A stretch of 64,000 nucleotides of DNA from Clavibacter michiganensis subsp. tessellarius (GTDB taxonomy: Bacteria; Actinomycetota; Actinomycetes; Actinomycetales; Microbacteriaceae), in NCBI RefSeq assembly GCF_021922985.1, contig NZ_CP040788.1:1736001-1800000 (forward strand), given 5' to 3'. The position numbers and the translations under genes were made by a program. Under the pieces are notes generated by a model that saw only the letters and a list, made by a program, of their open reading frames with translations, searched no databases and was not told the DNA's origin. The stretch's first letter is position 1. Each line of letters begins with the position of its first letter. Positions 4,363 through 12,976 of this stretch are shown one piece after another.

Positions 4363-5823
4363 TCAGCCGAGGAAGTAGTCGCGGACCTTCTCGTCGGAGT
4401 CCAAGATCCGCTCCGTCTCGACCCCGACCGAGCGCGCGAGGTCGACCGACCCCAGGAGGGCCGCCTCGACGTCCGGCGAGAAGGCCCTCTCGAGCACCTC
4501 GAGGCAGGTGGCCATGCTCGCGTCGAGCTCGTCGATCAGCGCCTGGTGCTCGGCGGCGAGCTTCTCGTCCAGCTCGCGCTGGTCGCGCAGGTAGCCCTCG
4601 ACGAGGGCTGCCTCCCGCCGGGAGAGCGCGTCCGAGACGGCCGAGTGCATGATCATGCCCACCGTGTTCCCGATGACCGCCCCGAGCACCGGCACCGGGA
4701 TGAGCGCCTGGCCCACGAAGGACGACAGCGCGCCGACGGCCGCCTCCAGGCAGACCAGCTCGGCGTTCTCGAGGAACTCCGCCTCGGCGATCTCGCCCGT
4801 CCGGAGCCGGTGCGCCTGCTCAGCGACGCCGAACGCCGCGGTCACCATGGCGCTGGCCACGGCTGCGGACGTGGTGGTGAAGTTGGTGAGCGCGTAGATG
4901 CTGAGGCCGCGGATCCCGCCCCTGAGGAAGCCCCTGCCGGAGTCGCCCGCGATCTCGGTCCAGTCCTCCTCGGTGAAGTCCTGGAGCCGCGTGCCGGCAC
5001 GGCGCTTCCGCACCACGGCGAGCACGAACGCCGTCGCCCCCTCGACCCCCGCGGCGACCAGGGTCGCCTTCGCGCCCTCCTGGGCGGTCGGCCTGCTCGC
5101 GCGGTGGGCATCGTCCCGTCGGCCCTGGTCGGTCGCGCGCAGCGAGTCCTTCTCCCCCTCCAGCGTCGCGTCGTACACGCCGCGCTGCACCTCGTCGTAG
5201 CGGAGGTGCGAGGCCTCGAGCGACTCGATTCCCAGGTCGCGGGTCGCGAAGAAGGTCTGGACGGCCTTCCAGTCGCGGAAGGACGGGCCATCGCCCCCGC
5301 GAGCGAGCAGACGGCCCGCCTCCTCGCGACTCATGCCGTGCAGCGCCTGGATCACCTCGAAGTGGTCGCTCGGGATCTGGTACCTGCCGCCGCCGCTCAC
5401 GAAGTCGGGGTACCTCTCGAGGTGCTCGGCGATGGCGCCGAGCCCGAATCGACCGCCCGCCGCGACGAACTTCTGCTGGATCTCGACGCCGCCGCGCATC
5501 AGGTCGACCGGTCCGTTGTCGTTCACCCACTCGTAGACCCGCCCCTCGCCCAGGATCTGGCTCCTGGCGTCCCCGATCCCGCTCTCGGCCGCCTCGGCGA
5601 TGAAGCCGTGCATCCCCTTCGTCCCGCCCCGGTTGCGCCCGACCACCTCGAGGTCGATGGTGCGGATGGCCGCGTCGACCCGTGCCAATGCGTCGCGGAG
5701 GTTCCCGTCCTGGCGCCGGAGCGCGGCGAGCAGCCCGTCGAGGCGCACCTGGTTGAGGTGGTTCACCCATGCCGCGACCGCCTGCTCCTGGTTGCGCTCG
5801 GCGAGGTCCGGCACGTCAACCAC
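4363..5823 (-). CDS. Unknown protein, second gene of a two-gene membrane-associated module
   Basis: A 486-residue protein I do not assign to a named family. The N-terminal half is soluble and charged, with NHLNQVRLDGLLAALRRQD near residue 20 and VNDNGPVDLMRGGVEIQQKF near residue 100. The region from about 240 to 400 is Ala/Gly-rich and hydrophobic (ALIPVPVLGAVIGNTVGMIM), compatible with membrane insertion or a pore-like segment. The C-terminus is helical and acidic and looks coiled-coil-like. Its start overlaps the end of the upstream gene by 8 nt, so the two are surely co-translated. I have the impression that similar pairs occur in distant phyla, which would fit a mobile accessory role, but this is memory rather than a search. 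Confidence 0.75.
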   Translation of the reverse strand: MVDVPDLAERNQEQAVAAWVNHLNQVRLDGLLAALRRQDGNLRDALARVDAAIRTIDLEVVGRNRGGTKGMHGFIAEAAESGIGDARSQILGEGRVYEWVNDNGPVDLMRGGVEIQQKFVAAGGRFGLGAIAEHLERYPDFVSGGGRYQIPSDHFEVIQALHGMSREEAGRLLARGGDGPSFRDWKAVQTFFATRDLGIESLEASHLRYDEVQRGVYDATLEGEKDSLRATDQGRRDDAHRASRPTAQEGAKATLVAAGVEGATAFVLAVVRKRRAGTRLQDFTEEDWTEIAGDSGRGFLRGGIRGLSIYALTNFTTTSAAVASAMVTAAFGVAEQAHRLRTGEIAEAEFLENAELVCLEAAVGALSSFVGQALIPVPVLGAVIGNTVGMIMHSAVSDALSRREAALVEGYLRDQRELDEKLAAEHQALIDELDASMATCLEVLERAFSPDVEAALLGSVDLARSVGVETERILDSDEKVRDYFLG

Positions 5824-6808
5824 GGTCGGCGTCCCCCTCGACCCGCTCGCTCAGCAGCGCCGCGCAGGCCTGCGTGCTGTTGACCAGAGCGGCCAGGCGC
5901 GACCGGTCGCTCGCAGGGAGAGCCGCGAAGTCGGCACCGAAGGAGCGCATCGCCTCGCGGTAGCTCGTCGTGAGCGACGTCCGGAGCTCGTCGGTGCGTC
6001 GGAGGAGGGCGTCGACCCTGGTGGCCAGCTCCTCCACGCGGGCGGTGTTGCGCATGACCGCGCCGAGAGCCTCCTGCTTCTCCTCGCGGGTCTCGCCCTT
6101 CTTCCACGCGAACAGGGCGACCGAGGTGAGGATCGCCGCTCCCGCGACGCTCCAGCCCACCGGACCGGACAGGGCGAGGATGGCCCCGCCCATGGCCGTC
6201 CCGCCGCCGCCGGCCGCCAGAGCGCCGCCGCCGAGCCAGGCGAGGGCCGCGTTCGTGGCCGCAGCGCCGGACAGGGCGGAGATCGCCGTGCCGGTCGACG
6301 CGGCGCCGAAGGTGGTCGCGACCCACATGGCCGCGCTCGGCGCCACGCTCGCGACCGCGGCCCCGGCGGCGAACCCGGCACCGCCTCCGGCCGCGGACCG
6401 CCGGGCGGCCTCGAGGTCCCGCCGTGCGAACTCCTCGACGTCCAGGAACTCCGCCTTGTCGACGTCGATCCGGCCGATGGCCGCATCGAAGGACTTCGGG
6501 GTGTTGGCGATGCTGTTGACCAGCGCCTCCACGTGCTCGATCAGGTCGGTCGACCGCTCGCGCTGACGCAGCAGCGCGAGTCCCGTGTCGTTCATCCCCG
6601 TGTACGCGATGTTGTACGCGGCGACGGCGTCCTCGTAGGGATCCGGCTTCCTCGCGGCGAGCTTCTCGACGGTCTCCTTCGTCGTGTCCCGGATGTCTCC
6701 CACCCGCTCGCCCACCTGCGTGGACGCGGCGCGCGCCCTCCGGGCGGCCTCGTCCATCGCCTTCGCGATGCCGTCCCTGGCCTTGCCCAACCCGCGCTGC
6801 TCGTCCAT
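5816..6808 (-). CDS. Unknown protein with Gly/Ala-zipper hydrophobic core, first gene of module
   Basis: A 330-residue protein. Residues 1-130 are helical and charged (KETVEKLAARKPDPYEDAV, then RERSTDLIEHVEALVNSIAN). Residues 140-245 are an extreme Gly/Ala-rich hydrophobic stretch (WLGGGALAAGGGGTAMGG, then LSGPVGWSVAGAAILTSVAL), ending at a basic KKGE. The last 85 residues are coiled-coil-like. This is the layout of a helical-hairpin membrane inserter rather than a transporter. No signal peptide is visible. It overlaps the next gene by 8 nt. A broken copy of its N-terminus lies upstream at 7381-7642, showing past duplication. Function unknown; a membrane-acting toxin or defence effector is only a hypothesis. 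Confidence 0.75.
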   Translation of the reverse strand: MDEQRGLGKARDGIAKAMDEAARRARAASTQVGERVGDIRDTTKETVEKLAARKPDPYEDAVAAYNIAYTGMNDTGLALLRQRERSTDLIEHVEALVNSIANTPKSFDAAIGRIDVDKAEFLDVEEFARRDLEAARRSAAGGGAGFAAGAAVASVAPSAAMWVATTFGAASTGTAISALSGAAATNAALAWLGGGALAAGGGGTAMGGAILALSGPVGWSVAGAAILTSVALFAWKKGETREEKQEALGAVMRNTARVEELATRVDALLRRTDELRTSLTTSYREAMRSFGADFAALPASDRSRLAALVNSTQACAALLSERVEGDADRG

Positions 6809-6904
6809 CGCACGCCACCGATCCCCGTCGAAGTCATTTCCTCACTGGAGGATATAGACGACCGGCGACACCTTCGCGGGAGGCGCGAGACGGATGAATC
6901 GCGT

Positions 6905-7376
6905 CGATCAGCCCCGAGCGCGATCCCGTCCCGCCGCAGCGCCTCGACGAGAAGGAGCTCCGCCGCGTCGACCGCGCGGAGCAGCTCCGCGGGCTCGGTG
7001 CCGATGCGCCCGACGACCGCGTCGATCCCGCGGAGCCCCGCCCGCGTCAGCAGCTGCTTCTCGTTGGTGATCCACTCGCCGCGGTGGGCGAGGATCGCGT
7101 GCGCCGCGGAGCACGCCGCCACCGAGAGGAGACCGGCGCACTGCGCGACCCGACCGTGGCGGGCGTGGCCCTCGCGGGCGTAGTGCAGCGTGAGCTCGGC
7201 GCGCTGCCACCAGATCTCGGGCGCGGACGCGCGCAGGGCCGGCGGGTACGGGAACGCCGGCACCTCGCCGCGGAGGGGACGGTTCACGCCGACCTCGGCC
7301 AGCAGGATCGTGCTCGGCAGGCCCGCCTGGTGGAACAGCACCTGCACGTTGACGAAGCGGCCCGCGAGCGCCTCCC
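6905..7376 (-). pseudogene. Nucleotidyltransferase C-terminal fragment
   Basis: The minus-strand frame reads ALAGRFVNVQVLFHQAGLP to LLLVEALRRDGIALG, resembling the C-terminal helical half of actinobacterial nucleotidyltransferase-domain proteins (WWQRAELTLHYAREG, CAGLLSVAA, HRGEWITNEKQLL). The N-terminal catalytic GS...DxD part is absent. The frame runs directly into an in-frame stop at the junction with a remnant of another gene, and no proper stop is found before it enters the next gene. This looks like a dead fragment brought in or left by deletion. Confidence 0.65.
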
Positions 7377-7642
7377 CCGTACTCGATTAGGTCGGTCGGT
7401 CGCTCGGACGGACGGCGACAGTAAGCAATCATCGCCGTCCATGGTTGTGCAGGCGGCGACACCTCGTCATGTGAATGCCGCTTCCTCACGGCAAGATTCT
7501 CGACAACCTCCTTCGCGGCTCTCTTGAGATACCCGCGCCCACCCAGCGACGCTAATGGCGCGTACACCGGTAGGGATGACCTAGCCCACGTCCAGCGCCA
7601 TCCAGCCCCTGCGACGCCCCGACCGCTCTGCGCGTCCATCAC
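7377..7642 (-). pseudogene. Degenerate N-terminal copy of the 330-residue module gene
   Basis: From MDAQSGRG at about 7639 the minus-strand frame parallels the intact gene at 5816-6808: KEVVENLAVRKRHSHDEV matches KETVEKLAARKPDPYEDAV, and SERPTDLIEY matches RERSTDLIEH. After that point homology stops and the nucleotidyltransferase fragment begins. Both the intact gene (6522-6530) and this remnant (7367-7375) carry AGCGCCTCC at the equivalent place, so the deletion or fusion probably used this 9-bp identity. About 85 residues of the copy survive, with internal divergence. Confidence 0.7.
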
Positions 7643-7974
7643 GCCCCTCCGGTCTCAGTGACTGTCATGTCATGCCGTGCGGCACGGGCACGGCCCACGC
7701 CGGACGTCCGGATAGCAGGACGGACGGACGGACGGTGGATCATGCGTCTCCGTAACCCCTCAGACCTACGGCGTACGGGCGATGCCCACCGCAGACCACA
7801 GGTACGTTGTCGGCTGCCTTACCCAGATCGCGGTGACGGTGTTCCCGCTCTCCAAAGGCCTACACGAGTCACCGAAGGTCTCTTCCTCGATTTGGGGGCA
7901 TTGCCCCAGTCTCGTGAAGTGAGAAGCTCGCTGCTAGCGCATCGGGCTACAAGCCCGCACGAACAGGAGACCCT
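7643..7974. other. Gene-free transition into low-GC island
   Basis: No convincing gene is seen. The stretch holds a short tetranucleotide repeat (GGAC repeated four and a half times at 7718-7735) and a weak hairpin around 7894-7907. Base composition falls toward the right, marking the left edge of acquired DNA. AGGAG at about 7961 serves the following gene. Confidence 0.5.
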
Positions 7975-10032
7975 ATGCCTGCCGACGATCGGCCACAAGA
8001 CGCTTCAAAGTACCGCGAGCAGAGGCGCCCGCCTTTAACAGCAAATGAGACCAGTCTGATTCACCACGTGTTGCACGGGCTTGTTTTTGACCTTGACAGT
8101 GCTCATTCAACCGGCCGTGCCAGCGAAGCCGGAATGCGATCTTGGTCTTCAAGTCGCGACGTCAGGGCAAGCGTAGTCAGGGATATACTGCGCGGTCAAA
8201 ACAGCAAGACCGCGACGCCAGACCCACACGGCATACGCATGAAGGGTGTGCGCTTAGTCGGTCAGCTAGACCTCGACCTCGTTGATTCACATATTGCACT
8301 GGATTTAACTAACTGCTTCCTACCGAGTGGCTTAAGAGGCCAGGGGCTCACCATGCCCTCCATAACGCTTCAACGATGCCTTGTCCTAGAGGGTGAATTC
8401 CGTGACAACCGTGCGGCTGTGGACCTCAGCGAATCAAAATTGGGCACACTCAACCTCGCAGAGACTACTATCTCCACCCTTCAGACTGGCGCGCTAAACA
8501 TTACAAATGCTGTCATCGCGAGTGATGTCACCCTTACAAAAGCGAGATTCATCTCCATCAGCAAGGGCACAACATTCGAACTTCAGCGAGCGCGCATCTC
8601 AGGCCACCTAAGAATGCCTGGAGCGCTCCTCGAAAATGACATCGCCTCCGCTATGGACTGCAGCGGCGCCGTCTTTAGCAACAACGTTCTATTGAACGGG
8701 GGCTTTAAAGCCAGAGGGGCCGGAGCAGGAGGCACCCTCCGGATGATCAGAACGAATATAAACGGTCAACTCGCCATGAAAAGTGCTCACCTTTTAAATG
8801 AATCAGGACCTGCATTCATCGGAGACGGACTGGTCTCCGCAGGGGGAATATTCATGTCTAACGGATTTAAGGCGATAGGTCATTCGAGCCTGGGTGCCAT
8901 AAGGCTTTTACATGCTGAAATTGGAAACACCCTGGCATTTGGTTCCGCTCGACTTGTGAACCAGGCAGGGCCGGCGTTTCTTGCGGAGGGTCTGACCGTG
9001 TCGGGAACGGTCTTTTTCAATAGGGGTTTCCGTGCGGTTTCTCGCAGCAAGCGAGCCGGGTTGGGATTGTACGGTAGCAAAATAAAAGGTCAGTTGATTA
9101 TGCGCGACTCCCTTCACGAAAACCACGAGGGCCCGGCTATAAATATAACGCGGTCTCAGATTGACGGTGATGCCATATTTGCCTCCTTGTTCGCTGCTTT
9201 TGGCGAGGGAGAACTGGGCGCAGTCCGCTTAGCATCCTCAACTGTTGGAGGCGCCGTGAGTTTCCGGGGGGCAAAGGTGGCGAATATGACAGGGCCAGCG
9301 CTGGTAGTGATTGAGGGCTCCATTGGAGGCAATTTGCAAATAGACGGCGAATTGGAGACATTGGGCGCAGCCGGCTACAGCGTCGTTAACCTTCAACGGA
9401 CGGAAGTCAGGGGCACCATTGCGCTGGAGGAAGGAAGTATTAAGAAGGCTCTAGATGGTGCGCAATGGGCAGTTGACGGGTTGACTTTCACAAGCTACCC
9501 AACCGTCGGCTTTGATGCATGGCTTTTCTTACTCAAGAATGGCACCCCCAACTACCGCCCACAGCCCTACCAGATATTGGCGTCAGTAAGCCGGGCACTG
9601 GGCCATGACGCGGATGCAAAGAAAGCAGTTATCACGCAGCTAGACGACCGGGTTGTCCGTGGCCACTTGCCGGCACCAACACGCGCATGGAACATTTTTA
9701 CGAAAGCCAGCCTAAGATACGGATATCAGCCATGGCGCGCCCTTATTGGCGTCCTCGGCGTCTTCCTTGCCGCGCTCATGCTCCTCGTGGTCAATCCCGA
9801 CGCCACACAAACCTTAGAAAACAAAGGCCCCTGCAACTTCACACAACAATTCAAGATCGCGGTAGATATGGTAATTCCTCTAGTTCGGACCAACACAGGT
9901 GCGCGATGCCTGCTGGTAGATAGTGGAGCGGGTGAGCTTTTGTCACTTGTAGGCGTCGTTCTAACACTTCTAGGCTGGGCACTTACAGCCCTTTTTGCGG
10001 CAGGCTTCACTCGGGCTGTGAGACAGATTTGA
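7975..10032 (+). CDS. Low-GC repeat protein with C-terminal membrane helices
   Basis: A 685-residue protein. Residues 80-500 hold a degenerate repeat of about 50-70 residues built on phrases such as GPAF, a GL.V.G..F...GFKA segment and a short beta-strand with a small-residue turn (GAIRLLHAEIGNTLAFGSARLVNQAGPAF and later copies), which suggests a right-handed beta-solenoid. Near the C-terminus are two hydrophobic helices at about 586-605 and 655-678. The arrangement recalls large actinobacterial repeat proteins often labelled membrane-associated oxidoreductase, though I see no cofactor motif. ATG at 7975 has AGGAG upstream. GC is near 50% with many A/T-ending codons, far below its neighbours, a strong sign of transfer. 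Role unknown. Confidence 0.8.
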   Translation: MPADDRPQDASKYREQRRPPLTANETSLIHHVLHGLVFDLDSAHSTGRASEAGMRSWSSSRDVRASVVRDILRGQNSKTATPDPHGIRMKGVRLVGQLDLDLVDSHIALDLTNCFLPSGLRGQGLTMPSITLQRCLVLEGEFRDNRAAVDLSESKLGTLNLAETTISTLQTGALNITNAVIASDVTLTKARFISISKGTTFELQRARISGHLRMPGALLENDIASAMDCSGAVFSNNVLLNGGFKARGAGAGGTLRMIRTNINGQLAMKSAHLLNESGPAFIGDGLVSAGGIFMSNGFKAIGHSSLGAIRLLHAEIGNTLAFGSARLVNQAGPAFLAEGLTVSGTVFFNRGFRAVSRSKRAGLGLYGSKIKGQLIMRDSLHENHEGPAINITRSQIDGDAIFASLFAAFGEGELGAVRLASSTVGGAVSFRGAKVANMTGPALVVIEGSIGGNLQIDGELETLGAAGYSVVNLQRTEVRGTIALEEGSIKKALDGAQWAVDGLTFTSYPTVGFDAWLFLLKNGTPNYRPQPYQILASVSRALGHDADAKKAVITQLDDRVVRGHLPAPTRAWNIFTKASLRYGYQPWRALIGVLGVFLAALMLLVVNPDATQTLENKGPCNFTQQFKIAVDMVIPLVRTNTGARCLLVDSGAGELLSLVGVVLTLLGWALTALFAAGFTRAVRQI

Positions 10033-10083
10033 TATGTCGTCGCGTGTTTCTTATGGGGCCGACTCAAGTGTGGACACAACCAC

Positions 10084-11271
10084 TCACGCCCGCCCCGCCA
10101 CGCTCCGCCACGACTGGATGCCGCCGCGCAGGCTCACCGCATCGCGCCCGGCTTCGCGGAGCGCGGCCGCGGCCGCCCGCGAACGCACGCCCGACGCGCA
10201 GTAGACGATGACCCGGTCGGTGATCGCGCCGGGCACCGCACCCGGATCCACCGTGACGATGCGCACCGGCACCGCGACGTGGCCGGGGATGGAGTCGACG
10301 AGGCGCTCGTCGGGCTCGCGCACGTCGAGGAGCACGACCTGCTCGTCGGAGGCGAGGATCCGCTCCACCTCCTCCGCGTCGAGCTCGGTGCCGTCGGTGG
10401 CCGCGCCCACGCCGCAGAACAGGTCGTAGTCGGCGAGCGCCGTGACCCGCTGGCGGCCCTTCGCGCGCTTCACGCCGATGGTGCGGCTGGTGCCGGCGAG
10501 CGCGTCGAGCACGACCACCCGGCCGATCAGCGGCGTCCCCGCACCCGTGACGAGCTTGATGACCTCGGTCGCCATGAGCGCACCGACCGTGCCGCACACC
10601 GCGCCGAACACGCCCGCCTCCTCGCAGGAGAGCACGGCGCCGTCGGCCGGCGGCTCCGGGAACACGTCGCGGTAGTCGATACCGCGGCCGTCGGGCGCGG
10701 CATCCCAGAAGACGGTGACCTGCGCGTCCCAGCGGTACACGGATCCCCACACGCACGGGACGCCGACGAGCGCGGCGGCGTCGCTGATGAGGTACCGCGT
10801 GGCGAAGTTGTCGGTGGCGTCGACGACCACGTCGTATCCGCCGAGGATCCGGAGGGCGTTGTCGTTCGTGAGCCGCTCGGCGTGCTCCACGACCTCGATG
10901 CCGGGGTCGGTGCGGTGCACGGAATCCGCCGCTGACGAGGTCTTCGGCCGGCCGACGTCGGGCGTGCCGTGGATGGTCTGGCGCTGGAGGTTGGAGAGGT
11001 CCACAGCATCGTCGTCTACGATTCCCAGGGTCCCGATCCCCGCTGCGGCCAAGTACTGCAGCACCGGGGAGCCCAGTCCGCCCGCGCCGATCACGAGCAC
11101 GCGCGCCTGGTCGATGCGGGACTGACCCCCCATCCCGATGCCGGGAAGGGCGAGGTGCCGGGAGTGCCGTTCGCGCCGCTCGTGCGCATCCTGCCCGGAG
11201 CCATGACCACCCAGGCCCCGCCCTCCGGGGTGCGTGCCGTCCAGATCGACGAGCGGCAGAGACGACCCCAT
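10084..11271 (-). CDS. MoeB/ThiF-type adenylyltransferase with C-terminal rhodanese domain
   Basis: A 395-residue protein. Residues 35-270 form the ThiF/MoeB E1-like domain: SRHLALPG, nucleotide-binding VLVIGAGGLGSP at about 58-69, DDDAVDLSNLQRQ and DATDNFATRYL. Residues 285-395 form a rhodanese domain with active-site loop CASGVRS. Enzymes of this MoeZ/MoeBR type adenylate and then sulfurate the C-terminus of MoaD/ThiS-like carriers for molybdopterin, thiamine or cysteine synthesis. The zinc-binding CxxC pairs of E. coli MoeB are not evident. ATG at 11271 has GGAGG six bases upstream and its start codon overlaps the divergent ATG at 11270 in a single CATG. Confidence 0.9.
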   Translation of the reverse strand: MGSSLPLVDLDGTHPGGRGLGGHGSGQDAHERRERHSRHLALPGIGMGGQSRIDQARVLVIGAGGLGSPVLQYLAAAGIGTLGIVDDDAVDLSNLQRQTIHGTPDVGRPKTSSAADSVHRTDPGIEVVEHAERLTNDNALRILGGYDVVVDATDNFATRYLISDAAALVGVPCVWGSVYRWDAQVTVFWDAAPDGRGIDYRDVFPEPPADGAVLSCEEAGVFGAVCGTVGALMATEVIKLVTGAGTPLIGRVVVLDALAGTSRTIGVKRAKGRQRVTALADYDLFCGVGAATDGTELDAEEVERILASDEQVVLLDVREPDERLVDSIPGHVAVPVRIVTVDPGAVPGAITDRVIVYCASGVRSRAAAAALREAGRDAVSLRGGIQSWRSVAGRA

Positions 11272-12976
11272 GACAGACCTCCGTACGGACGGCGGACGCG
11301 GACCCGCGTCGACCGGACCCAGCGTACGACGGCCCGCCGACGGTCCCCGCGGCGGGCGTCCCTCGGGCCCCCTCGGCCGCTTCCACCACCGCCGCTGGGG
11401 CGACGCCTGGCTCATCGGGCTCCTCGGCTTCCTGCTCGCGCTCCCCCTCGCCGGCGCGCCCTCGGTCTGGTACGACGAGGCCGCCACCGTGATCTCCGCC
11501 ACCCGCGGCTGGGACGACCTCCTCCGCGAGCTCAGCACGGTCGACGCCGTCCACGGCCTCTACTACGCGGGCATGAAGGTGTGGTTCGAGCTGGTCGGCT
11601 ACTCCCCCACCTCGCTCCGGTTCCCGAGCGCCGTCTTCATCGGCCTCGCCGCCGCCGGGGTCGTGCTCCTCACCCGCACCGTCTCGACGCGCGCCACGGG
11701 CATCGTCGCCGGGCTGGCCTTCGTCGTGATCCCGCGCTCGGCCTGGATGGGCACGGAAGGCCGGTCCTTCGCGCTCGGCACCCTGATCGCCGTCGCGCTC
11801 ACCATCACGCTGGTGCTCGCGGCCCGCCGGGCCGGCGCGCGCTGGCAGGTGCAGGCCAGGTGGTGGGCGCTCTACGGGCTGCTCGCGTGGCTCGGCGCGT
11901 CCACGTTCGTGTACCTGGCGCTGCTCGTCGGCGCGCACGGCGTCGTGATCCTCTGGGCCATCGCCTCCGCGCGCGCCGGCCGCCGCAGCCGGCGCCCCAT
12001 GGTCGTGTCGCTGCTCGGCTGGGCGCTCGCCTCGATCACCGCCGGGCTGCTGTCGCTGCCGCTCGTGCGCGTGGTGACGGAGCAGTCGGGCCAGGTCGGC
12101 TGGATCAAGCCCATCGGCCCGAACACGATCACGCAGGTGATCTCGACGCAGCTCTTCTACCAGAACGACGTCTTCGGCTTCCTCGCCTGGGCGCTGGCGC
12201 TCGTGGGCCTCGCGCTGCTGGTGCGGCGCGGGATCCGCCTGGTGCGCGCCCGCCTGGCCTCGCGCGTGGAGCCGGAGGGCGCCCTCGCCGAGTACGAGTC
12301 GGCGTACCTCCACGCCGGGTGGTCGCCGACGATCCTGCAGCTCGCGGTCGTCTGGTTCGTCGTGCCGACGCTGCTGCTCATCGGCGCGTCCACGCTCATG
12401 TCGCCGCTGTACTCGCCGCGCTACATGGCATACACGGCGCCCGCGTTCGCGATGCTCATGGCCGTCGGGATCCTCGCACTCCGGTGGAAGCCGCTCGTCG
12501 CCGCCGTCACGGCCGTGCTCGTGGCGCTCTCGGTGATGCAGCTCGTGCACGACCGCACCACCACCCGGAAGGCCGACTCCGACTGGGCCGCCATCGCGCG
12601 GATCGTGTCCGAGGAGCGCGCGCAGGAGGCGCCCGGCACGAGCGAGGCCGTGATCTTCGGGCCCGTGCGCCGGCACCCCAAGGCGACCTCGCGCATCGTC
12701 GGGTACTCCTACCCCGACGCGTTCCGCGGCATGGACGACATCCTCCTGCGCACGCCGCCCGGCGACACCGACGGCCTCTGGGAGGAGACGTACCCGCTGG
12801 CCGACCGCGTCGACGAGGTCGACGGCGCCGACGTCGTGTGGCTCGTCACGAGCGACAAGCAGGACATCCGAGACGACGTGGCTGAGGCCCTCACCCCGCG
12901 CGGCTTCGCCAAGACCGACGACTGGCACGTGATGAACGCGAGCGTCGAGCGGTACGAGCGGGTCGCGGCGGGCTGA
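11270..12976 (+). CDS. Polytopic membrane glycosyltransferase (GT39/ArnT-like)
   Basis: A 568-residue membrane protein with about ten hydrophobic segments. The first loop after TM1 contains WYDEAATVISATRGWDDLL, the acidic loop typical of lipid-phosphate-sugar-dependent GT-C glycosyltransferases, and HGLYYAGMKVWFELVGYSPTSLRFPS matches the family pattern. It likely transfers a sugar from polyprenyl phosphate outside the membrane. ATG at 11270 lacks a strong Shine-Dalgarno and sits face to face with the moeB-like start, so both genes share one short promoter interval inside their coding starts; a slightly upstream or downstream start is possible. Confidence 0.82.
   Translation: MTDLRTDGGRGPASTGPSVRRPADGPRGGRPSGPLGRFHHRRWGDAWLIGLLGFLLALPLAGAPSVWYDEAATVISATRGWDDLLRELSTVDAVHGLYYAGMKVWFELVGYSPTSLRFPSAVFIGLAAAGVVLLTRTVSTRATGIVAGLAFVVIPRSAWMGTEGRSFALGTLIAVALTITLVLAARRAGARWQVQARWWALYGLLAWLGASTFVYLALLVGAHGVVILWAIASARAGRRSRRPMVVSLLGWALASITAGLLSLPLVRVVTEQSGQVGWIKPIGPNTITQVISTQLFYQNDVFGFLAWALALVGLALLVRRGIRLVRARLASRVEPEGALAEYESAYLHAGWSPTILQLAVVWFVVPTLLLIGASTLMSPLYSPRYMAYTAPAFAMLMAVGILALRWKPLVAAVTAVLVALSVMQLVHDRTTTRKADSDWAAIARIVSEERAQEAPGTSEAVIFGPVRRHPKATSRIVGYSYPDAFRGMDDILLRTPPGDTDGLWEETYPLADRVDEVDGADVVWLVTSDKQDIRDDVAEALTPRGFAKTDDWHVMNASVERYERVAAG

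What the first reader, a model, noticed from the sequence alone, without database searches (positions are those of the whole stretch)
4363..6808. Two-gene module with Gly/Ala-zipper membrane cores, function unknown
Two overlapping genes encode 330- and 486-residue proteins, neither with a signal peptide, each joining coiled-coil-like ends to a Gly/Ala-rich hydrophobic core. This layout fits proteins that are held soluble and then insert into membranes, as in abortive-infection effectors or toxins. The locus sits in an accessory island with a broken duplicate. Sequence shows gene overlap and core composition; the toxic or defence role is inference.
Basis: partly seen in the sequence, partly recalled or inferred. 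Interest (0 to 1): 0.75.

Follow-up and report, generated by a model that had tools for sequence, protein, structure and literature searches.

The report
Two-gene membrane-anchored candidate phage-defence module
Two overlapping bacterial genes belong to a catalogued but unexplained candidate anti-phage system; the first looks like a membrane platform that also occurs with a partner from another named defence system, and the second looks like a membrane-tethered, nuclease-like effector.

Summary
The two genes are real and mostly as described. PADLOC-DB already lists the pair as PDC-M09, a candidate defence system (A 477 bits, B 820 bits); I found no paper naming it. The pair is sporadic (B in 6 of 199 family genomes, own included), and in 27 of 30 records with a B relative an A gene directly precedes a full-length B. 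New here: (1) A's 98-residue uncharged Gly/Ala core is its most conserved part. (2) B is more than coiled coil plus core: residues 40-242 are modelled as an alpha/beta domain, with E77, D107, Q116 and K118 invariant in 110 of 110 sequences, as in PD-(D/E)xK nucleases; a homology test was not significant. (3) In two virus contigs and a Lactiplantibacillus plasmid, A is paired with BnzB of the Bunzi system instead of B, and those BnzBs end in B's C-terminal tail; a Vibrio BnzB without A lacks it. Best reading: A is a membrane platform that holds effectors by that tail; B is a membrane-tethered, nuclease-like defence effector. Nothing was tested in cells, and my neighbourhood control showed no excess of defence genes.

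The parts
5816..6808 (-). Gene A, 330 aa, PDC-M09A; membrane platform candidate
   Evidence: ORF; PADLOC PDLC04406 477.4 bits, residues 1-328 of 330
4363..5823 (-). Gene B, 486 aa, PDC-M09B; nuclease-like domain plus membrane half plus tail
   Evidence: ORF; PADLOC PDLC04408 820.5 bits, residues 1-485
5816..5823 (-). 8-bp overlap of A's end and B's start
   Evidence: coordinates; overlap or close abutment in relatives
6104..6397 (-). A's uncharged Gly/Ala core, residues 138-235
   Evidence: 98-residue run, longest of 2000 shuffles 43; highest conservation of the protein at residues 151-225
6419..6640 (-). A's first helical arm, residues 57-130
   Evidence: AlphaFold2 model, block-mean pLDDT 57-93
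5849..6061 (-). A's second helical arm, residues 250-320
   Evidence: AlphaFold2 model, block-mean pLDDT 73-93
5098..5706 (-). B's N-terminal alpha/beta domain, residues 40-242
   Evidence: AlphaFold2 model, block-mean pLDDT 83-95 in 17 of 20 blocks of residues 41-240, 65-73 in three; alpha-beta-beta-beta-alpha-beta order
5593..5595 (-). B Glu77, invariant, in the HGxxAE motif
   Evidence: 110 of 110
5503..5505 (-). B Asp107, invariant
   Evidence: 110 of 110
5470..5478 (-). B Gln116-x-Lys118, invariant
   Evidence: 110 of 110 each
4636..5085 (-). B's hydrophobic helical half, residues 247-396
   Evidence: helices in a low-confidence part of the model (block-mean pLDDT 44-76); non-significant fold resemblance to complex I / TIM23-core chains
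4366..4551 (-). B's C-terminal tail, residues 425-486; proposed docking site for A
   Evidence: tail profile hits only BnzB-like proteins outside B
7367..7639 (-). Remnant of a second A-like gene
   Evidence: 69% DNA identity over 161 bp; 34% protein identity over 92 residues of A

Best explanation
The pair is one operon of a two-component, membrane-associated anti-phage (or anti-mobile-DNA) module. A forms helical arms around a glycine-zipper core that inserts into the cytoplasmic membrane and acts as a platform. B docks on A through its C-terminal tail, inserts its own Gly-rich helices, and holds a PD-(D/E)xK-like nuclease domain at the membrane, where it would cut incoming DNA, or be triggered by infection. 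Shown: overlapping gene pair, conservation, the invariant residues, the modelled alpha/beta domain, sharing of A and of the tail with BnzB loci. Inferred: co-transcription, defence, membrane insertion, docking, nuclease activity, which DNA is cut.
For: Both proteins are full-length PADLOC PDC-M09A/B. PDCs are putative defence candidates; a 2026 paper says of them (chiefly of the single-gene ones) that they were found by guilt-by-embedding (PMC12988326, passages). A directly precedes a full-length B in 27 of the 30 records that have a B relative at E under 1e-30; the other three (L007, L008, L030) hold partial copies. Sporadic: B in 6 of 199 family genomes, own included, each with A beside it at over 470 bits; 3 of 396 in the phylum sample, own included, one of them a 44-bit partial match with a stop inside; 61 plasmid records. 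H72, G73, E77, D107, Q116, K118 and P151 are invariant in 110 of 110 Bs, E80 in 109, in a domain modelled with the order of a PD-(D/E)xK core. A's core is the most conserved part. In L036 an A (PDC-M09A, 250 bits) follows BnzB (354.6 bits) with an overlap; L037 is the same arrangement, cut by the contig end; the Lactiplantibacillus plantarum plasmid record L123 repeats it, while the Vibrio BnzB in L124, which has no A within the stretch's two neighbours tested, has no tail. Outside B, the tail profile hit only the BnzBs of L036 and L037 at E up to 1 among 3357 ORFs (overlapping loci counted more than once).
Against: B's N-domain gave no Pfam hit, no significant profile match to Mrr_cat (score 14.99, E 0.058, 11 columns; 2 of 30 column-permuted controls scored higher) and no restriction-enzyme fold among the 50 listed matches of each search, where helices of the whole model dominate. 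B's membrane half is modelled poorly, A's core very poorly. Neighbourhood control: 87 PADLOC families hit by 113 neighbours of the pair against 83 by 114 control proteins, so no enrichment. The same 2026 paper says that many of the most prevalent single-gene PDCs are not associated with known defence islands and that PDCs are unvalidated. L036 and L037 were found through A, so their adjacency to A is by selection; only L123 was found through BnzB, as the best of 485 records and a close relative of L036's BnzB (58%), and it is one of only two that I looked at.
Confidence: 0.5

Rival explanations
1. Pore-forming abortive infection: A and B stay soluble or quiescent and, on infection, insert their glycine-zipper cores and depolarise the cell; B's N-domain would be a sensor without catalysis.
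For: Uncharged 98-residue core; helical arm, core, helical arm layout, with ClyA-type pore formers among the weak fold rows (E 0.37 and 1.1); sub-threshold Pfam hits in B relatives to Romo1 (E 0.006 and 0.0055) and a class II bacteriocin (E 0.037); a core that tolerates almost no change.
Against: No significant fold match. It does not explain the invariant E-D-QxK set or the tail shared with BnzB.
Confidence: 0.25
2. Dynamin-like membrane remodelling or repair: A is a stalk-and-paddle without GTPase that works with GTPases such as the dynamins beside it in Lactococcus plasmids.
For: Weak LeoBC match of A (24.8 bits) and of an A relative (25.3 bits); dynamin genes near the pair in L027, L061 and L062, one of them with a LeoBC match of 45.2 bits.
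Against: In L061 and L062 insertion elements lie between the first dynamin and the pair; L011, another Lactococcus plasmid, has no dynamin annotated in the stretch read; none is annotated in the stretches read of the E. coli, Klebsiella, Leptolyngbya or Niallia records, though one E. coli stretch (L025) has a GTPase-family gene 3.8 kb before A.
Confidence: 0.08
3. Not anti-phage: a plasmid or mobile-element module, for example exclusion of incoming plasmids or a stability function.
For: Frequent on plasmids (61 records, 30 of them typed conjugative); near insertion sequences or tellurite genes in Klebsiella; no enrichment of defence genes in my control.
Against: Chromosome-sized contigs in three Clavibacter genomes, at one site, and six E. 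coli chromosomes; pairing of A with BnzB of a named defence system.
Confidence: 0.15

Closest known systems
PDC-M09 (PADLOC-DB 2.0.0 candidate system)
   Same: Both proteins match over their full length; same gene pair.
   Different: Nothing measured differs; no paper in the library searched names PDC-M09.
Bunzi (BnzA + BnzB)
   Same: A relatives occur directly after BnzB homologues, which carry B's tail; two-gene layout.
   Different: No BnzB match in the window's own genome, though the control genomes were silent too; BnzA's model did not match in the L036/L037 records, which are fragments; outside the tail no likeness of B to BnzB was found. That Bunzi was shown to protect against phage is recalled, not read.
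SNIPE (membrane-bound nuclease, PMC13190303: abstract, outline and passages)
   Same: Proposed principle: a nuclease fixed in the inner membrane cuts DNA as it enters. A's core also resembles a phage tape-measure family weakly (E 6.6e-4).
   Different: SNIPE is one protein with DUF4041 and a GIY-YIG nuclease; neither was listed for A or B by Pfam. A works-like comparison only.
LeoBC / bacterial dynamin-like proteins (PMC4159319: passages)
   Same: Gly-rich hydrophobic tip between helices; weak LeoBC profile match.
   Different: No GTPase domain listed in A or B.
DUF726 and HTH proteins with an A-like core
   Same: Same Gly/Ala core.
   Different: Fused to a DUF726 or an HTH domain in one chain; no B or tail hit in those loci.

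Membership tests
PDC-M09 | PDC-M09A profile match over the full protein | tested here: met
   477.4 bits, residues 1-328
PDC-M09 | PDC-M09B profile match over the full protein | tested here: met
   820.5 bits, residues 1-485
PDC-M09 | The two genes adjacent | tested here: met
   8-bp overlap
PDC-M09 | Anti-phage activity | not testable with these tools
   candidate class, validation pending for most (PMC12988326, passages)
Bunzi | BnzB present in the genome | tested here: inconclusive
   no match in 4 genus genomes, own included, but the control set was silent too; B itself is not BnzB by PADLOC
Bunzi | A is a BnzA | tested here: not met
   no BnzA among PADLOC matches of A at E up to 10; HMMER's filters drop most matches above about 0.1
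PD-(D/E)xK nucleases (B, residues 40-242) | Conserved acidic residue, Asp and (E/Q)xK in order | tested here: met
   E77, D107, Q116-x-K118 in 110 of 110
PD-(D/E)xK nucleases (B, residues 40-242) | alpha-beta-beta-beta-alpha-beta core | tested here: met
   H67-90, E97-99, E108-110, E113-117, H128-137, E147-150 in the model; order of elements only, no superposition
PD-(D/E)xK nucleases (B, residues 40-242) | Profile homology to a known member family (Mrr_cat) | tested here: inconclusive
   score 14.99, E 0.058, 2 of 30 permuted controls higher
PD-(D/E)xK nucleases (B, residues 40-242) | Fold match to a solved member | tested here: inconclusive
   none among the 50 rows listed for the whole model in each search; no domain-only model could be made
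Tim17/22/23 four-helix fold (B, residues 247-396) | Fold match | tested here: inconclusive
   12 of the 50 Foldseek rows are complex I chains or the TIM23 core, the best at probability 0.93, none with E under 0.5
SNIPE | GIY-YIG nuclease and DUF4041 | tested here: not met
   by Pfam: no match in B; six weak others in A
ClyA-type pore-forming toxins (A) | Fold match | tested here: inconclusive
   2wcd_A E 0.37, 6mrt_A E 1.1
Dynamin-like proteins (A) | GTPase domain | tested here: not met
   by Pfam: no Dynamin_N in A or B

The most novel reading that the evidence does not exclude
A is a general membrane platform of bacterial immunity that carries interchangeable effectors: B in PDC-M09, BnzB in a Bunzi variant without BnzA, each fixed to A by the same short C-terminal tail. 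The near-unchanging glycine-zipper core would be the part that inserts into, or senses, the membrane opened by phage DNA entry, and B would be a PD-(D/E)xK nuclease acting at that site, a two-protein counterpart of SNIPE.
Probability: 0.3. Interest if true: 0.82.

Novelty: new member of a known kind. Interest (0 to 1): 0.52.

Why it matters
PDC-M09 is a widespread candidate whose function I did not find described. The tail shared by B and BnzB joins it to a named system and gives a testable rule: the tail should predict which effectors sit on A. The invariant E-D-QxK set gives single-residue knock-outs that would tell a nuclease mechanism from a pore mechanism at once.

Tried and rejected
Housekeeping gene pair: rejected; 6 of 199 family genomes and 3 of 396 phylum genomes have a B match, own included in both, and the genus relative G034 has neither gene and none at the same site.

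Ordinary phage gene: not supported; one record each for B and A among 50,697 phage records, both partial. A scan of viral contigs with the window's B found no relative; scans with alignments of distant relatives found intact pairs in six contigs (L033, L040, L041, L042, L043, L044) besides A with BnzB in two and other partial matches. Those records may be proviruses or plasmids.

Defence-island enrichment: tested with 13 loci (5 kb on each side; 7.8 kb in all for L011) against 13 control stretches of 10 kb from the same records, half a record away. A 14th locus (L030) was dropped, with its control (L079), because its B is partial, and L062 stood in for L027, whose record is too short for a control. 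No enrichment: 87 families hit in the target set, 83 in the control set at E up to 1e-10. Single-gene PADLOC models are unspecific (controls rang for Cas12f on TnpB genes and GajB on a helicase), so this is weak evidence either way. Names such as McrBC, BREX, SIR2 and type I restriction near the pair are therefore anecdotes.

Homology of B's N-domain to Mrr_cat: not significant. A ClyA-like fold for A: nothing significant. VIA-align rows for B are dominated by helical repeats. Foldseek of B against viral models gave no match with E under 0.2. Solved structures by sequence: best E 0.1 (A) and 0.13 (B).

Membrane half of B in other proteins: one search lists 15 further ORFs in viral contigs (L045-L059) and three weak ones (E 0.12) in L025, L038 and L040; the L045-L059 loci were fetched with A1 by patterns that include one from that region, so no count is drawn from them.

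Full report
1. What is there. Searches confirm two minus-strand genes: A, 5816-6808, 330 aa, and B, 4363-5823, 486 aa, overlapping by 8 bp. The genome is a Clavibacter: B is 98% identical to a Clavibacter californiensis protein, and the relatives G109 and G166 have contigs of the same length as those listed for two named Clavibacter species. A has one run of 98 residues without charge (2000 shuffles: longest 43); B has one of 37 (1 of 2000 shuffles as long or longer).

2. It is already catalogued. Pfam and NCBIfam have nothing above their cut-offs. PADLOC-DB 2.0.0 names A as PDC-M09A (477 bits) and B as PDC-M09B (820 bits). PDCs are described in the papers seen as putative candidates found by guilt-by-embedding (said chiefly of single-gene ones) and not validated, many of the prevalent ones lying outside known defence islands (PMC12988326, passages), or as unpublished candidates (PMC11811056, passages). 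A full-text search for PDC-M09 gave no paper, so the nine papers that hold a word beginning PDC-M (listing) do not name it in the text held; supplements, preprints and subscription papers were not searched.

3. Distribution. B: 6 of 199 genomes of the family, own included, with A beside it in all six; 3 of 396 in the phylum sample, own included, one partial with a stop inside; 61 plasmid records, of which 46 are Klebsiella, with Lactococcus, Leptolyngbya, Rhodococcus, Curtobacterium, Raoultella and Niallia; with the Klebsiella pair as query, 11 of 5426 E. coli genomes, six of them chromosomal with 79-100% of the query covered, the other five with 5-7% on plasmids. In one search, 30 distinct records have a B relative at E under 1e-30; in 27 a full-length B has A directly upstream on the same strand (in L002 A is in two reading frames), and the other three (L007, L008, L030) hold partial copies; L058, at 4e-11, is not counted. 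Protein searches gave 1154 relatives of B and 5261 of A at E up to 0.001 among the roughly 8000 candidates scored in each: A, or its core, is the more widespread. In the genus, the pair lies between a GNAT-like gene (by eye; no Pfam hit) and the ThiF-rhodanese gene (10084-11538) in G109 and G166; G034 lacks it; L007 has lost 5022-7081.

4. Anatomy of A. In 77 relatives the Gly/Ala core at residues 151-225 has mean information of 3.75-4.08 bits per column in blocks of 15, against 2.30-3.54 elsewhere. The AlphaFold2 model shows helical arms with confidence near 90 at residues 81-120 and 271-320 and a core mostly below 50. No fold match is significant. The same core occurs in other architectures of the family's genomes: an HTH protein (L117; L118 alike by eye), DUF726 proteins (L120, L121; L122 alike by eye) and two more (L116, L119), and weakly in LeoBC and in a phage tape-measure family (E 6.6e-4; composition may account for it).

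5. Anatomy of B. In 110 sequences, down to 25% identical to the window's, H72, G73, E77, D107, Q116, K118 and P151 never change, and E80 changes once. The model gives residues 41-240 at block-mean pLDDT 83-95 in 17 of 20 blocks, with a helix carrying E77 and E80, then strands around D107 and Q116-x-K118, a helix and a strand. This is the order of a PD-(D/E)xK core (recalled). A profile comparison with 30 Mrr_cat domains put Q116-x-K118 on Mrr's QxK strand over 11 columns but was not better than chance, so the assignment rests on motif and predicted topology only. Residues 247-396 are Gly-rich helices of low confidence; 12 of the 50 Foldseek rows are complex I chains or the TIM23 core (the identity of the complex I chains as B14.7/NDUFA11 is recalled), none significant. 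Residues 425-486 form a conserved, mostly helical tail.

6. Partner exchange. An A relative in virus contig L036 (7598-8695) follows, with an overlap, a 481-aa protein that is BnzB by PADLOC (354.6 bits, residues 39-392) and whose residues 445-475 match the end of PDC-M09B. L037 has the same pair cut by the contig end (220 bits to that BnzB). A profile of B's tail, built from B sequences only, hit nothing else outside B at E up to 1 among 3357 ORFs of all loci then held, overlapping loci included (E 9.6e-6 and 1.2e-4). Searching plasmids with that BnzB gave 485 records, 11 of them covering at least 80% of it. Of the 485 I read two: in the best one (Lactiplantibacillus plantarum, L123) BnzB is followed, one base apart, by an A (300 bits) and has the tail (19.4 bits); in a Vibrio (L124, 73% covered), BnzB is preceded by a 562-aa protein that the A profile does not hit, and has no tail hit. 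BnzA's own model matched nothing in the L036 and L037 records, which are fragments. The simplest account is that A replaces BnzA and that the tail is what binds A; this is inference from four loci, two of which were found through A.

7. Neighbourhood. Within about 10 kb of the pair lie McrBC genes (L012), a restriction endonuclease gene, called McrBC-like in a sister record (L028), WYL and SIR2 genes (L025), WYL, TrlF and BREX (L026), DUF3644/PDC-S19 and a methyltransferase (L009), and two dynamins (L027). A matched control did not bear this out: 87 PADLOC families hit by 113 neighbours, 83 by 114 control proteins. The defence reading therefore rests on PADLOC's listing and on the BnzB link, not on my neighbourhood count.

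8. Mechanism. I judge a membrane-held, nuclease-like effector on a shared platform the most likely (0.5), a pore-forming abortive system next (0.25). SNIPE shows that a nuclease in the inner membrane can cut phage DNA at entry (PMC13190303, abstract, outline and passages); the comparison is of principle, not of membership.

9. Verdict. Real, catalogued, unexplained; the new elements are B's nuclease-like domain, the conservation of A's core and the exchange of partners with Bunzi.

Noticed in passing
window 7375-10083: A 2.7-kb insertion with low GC (54% at 8001-10000 against about 73%) carries a 685-aa ORF (7975-10032) without a Pfam, PHROGs or PADLOC match, and replaces about 340 bp of a nucleotidyltransferase-like gene (by eye) that is an open frame in G166 (L066:12034-12870).
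   Followed up: partly
L027, L061, L062: Lactococcus plasmids have two dynamin-family genes around the pair; in L027 both begin with an HTH domain and one matches LeoBC at 45 bits.
   Followed up: partly
[not shown]
   Followed up: no
L012 and L063, upstream of A: Two Klebsiella plasmids hold McrBC in one and an AAA ATPase with a nuclease-domain gene in the other, in the same slot before the pair.
   Followed up: no
L117, L118, L120-L122: The A core occurs in one chain with HTH and with DUF726 domains in other genomes of the same family.
   Followed up: partly
L036:8731-9489: A GIY-YIG nuclease gene (LEM-3-like, E 6e-14) follows A in the BnzB-A locus.
   Followed up: no
P0249 (relative of B): The protein database gives this B relative a precomputed Pfam accession, PF27347.1, that the held Pfam copy did not report for it; a newer family may cover B.
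   Followed up: partly
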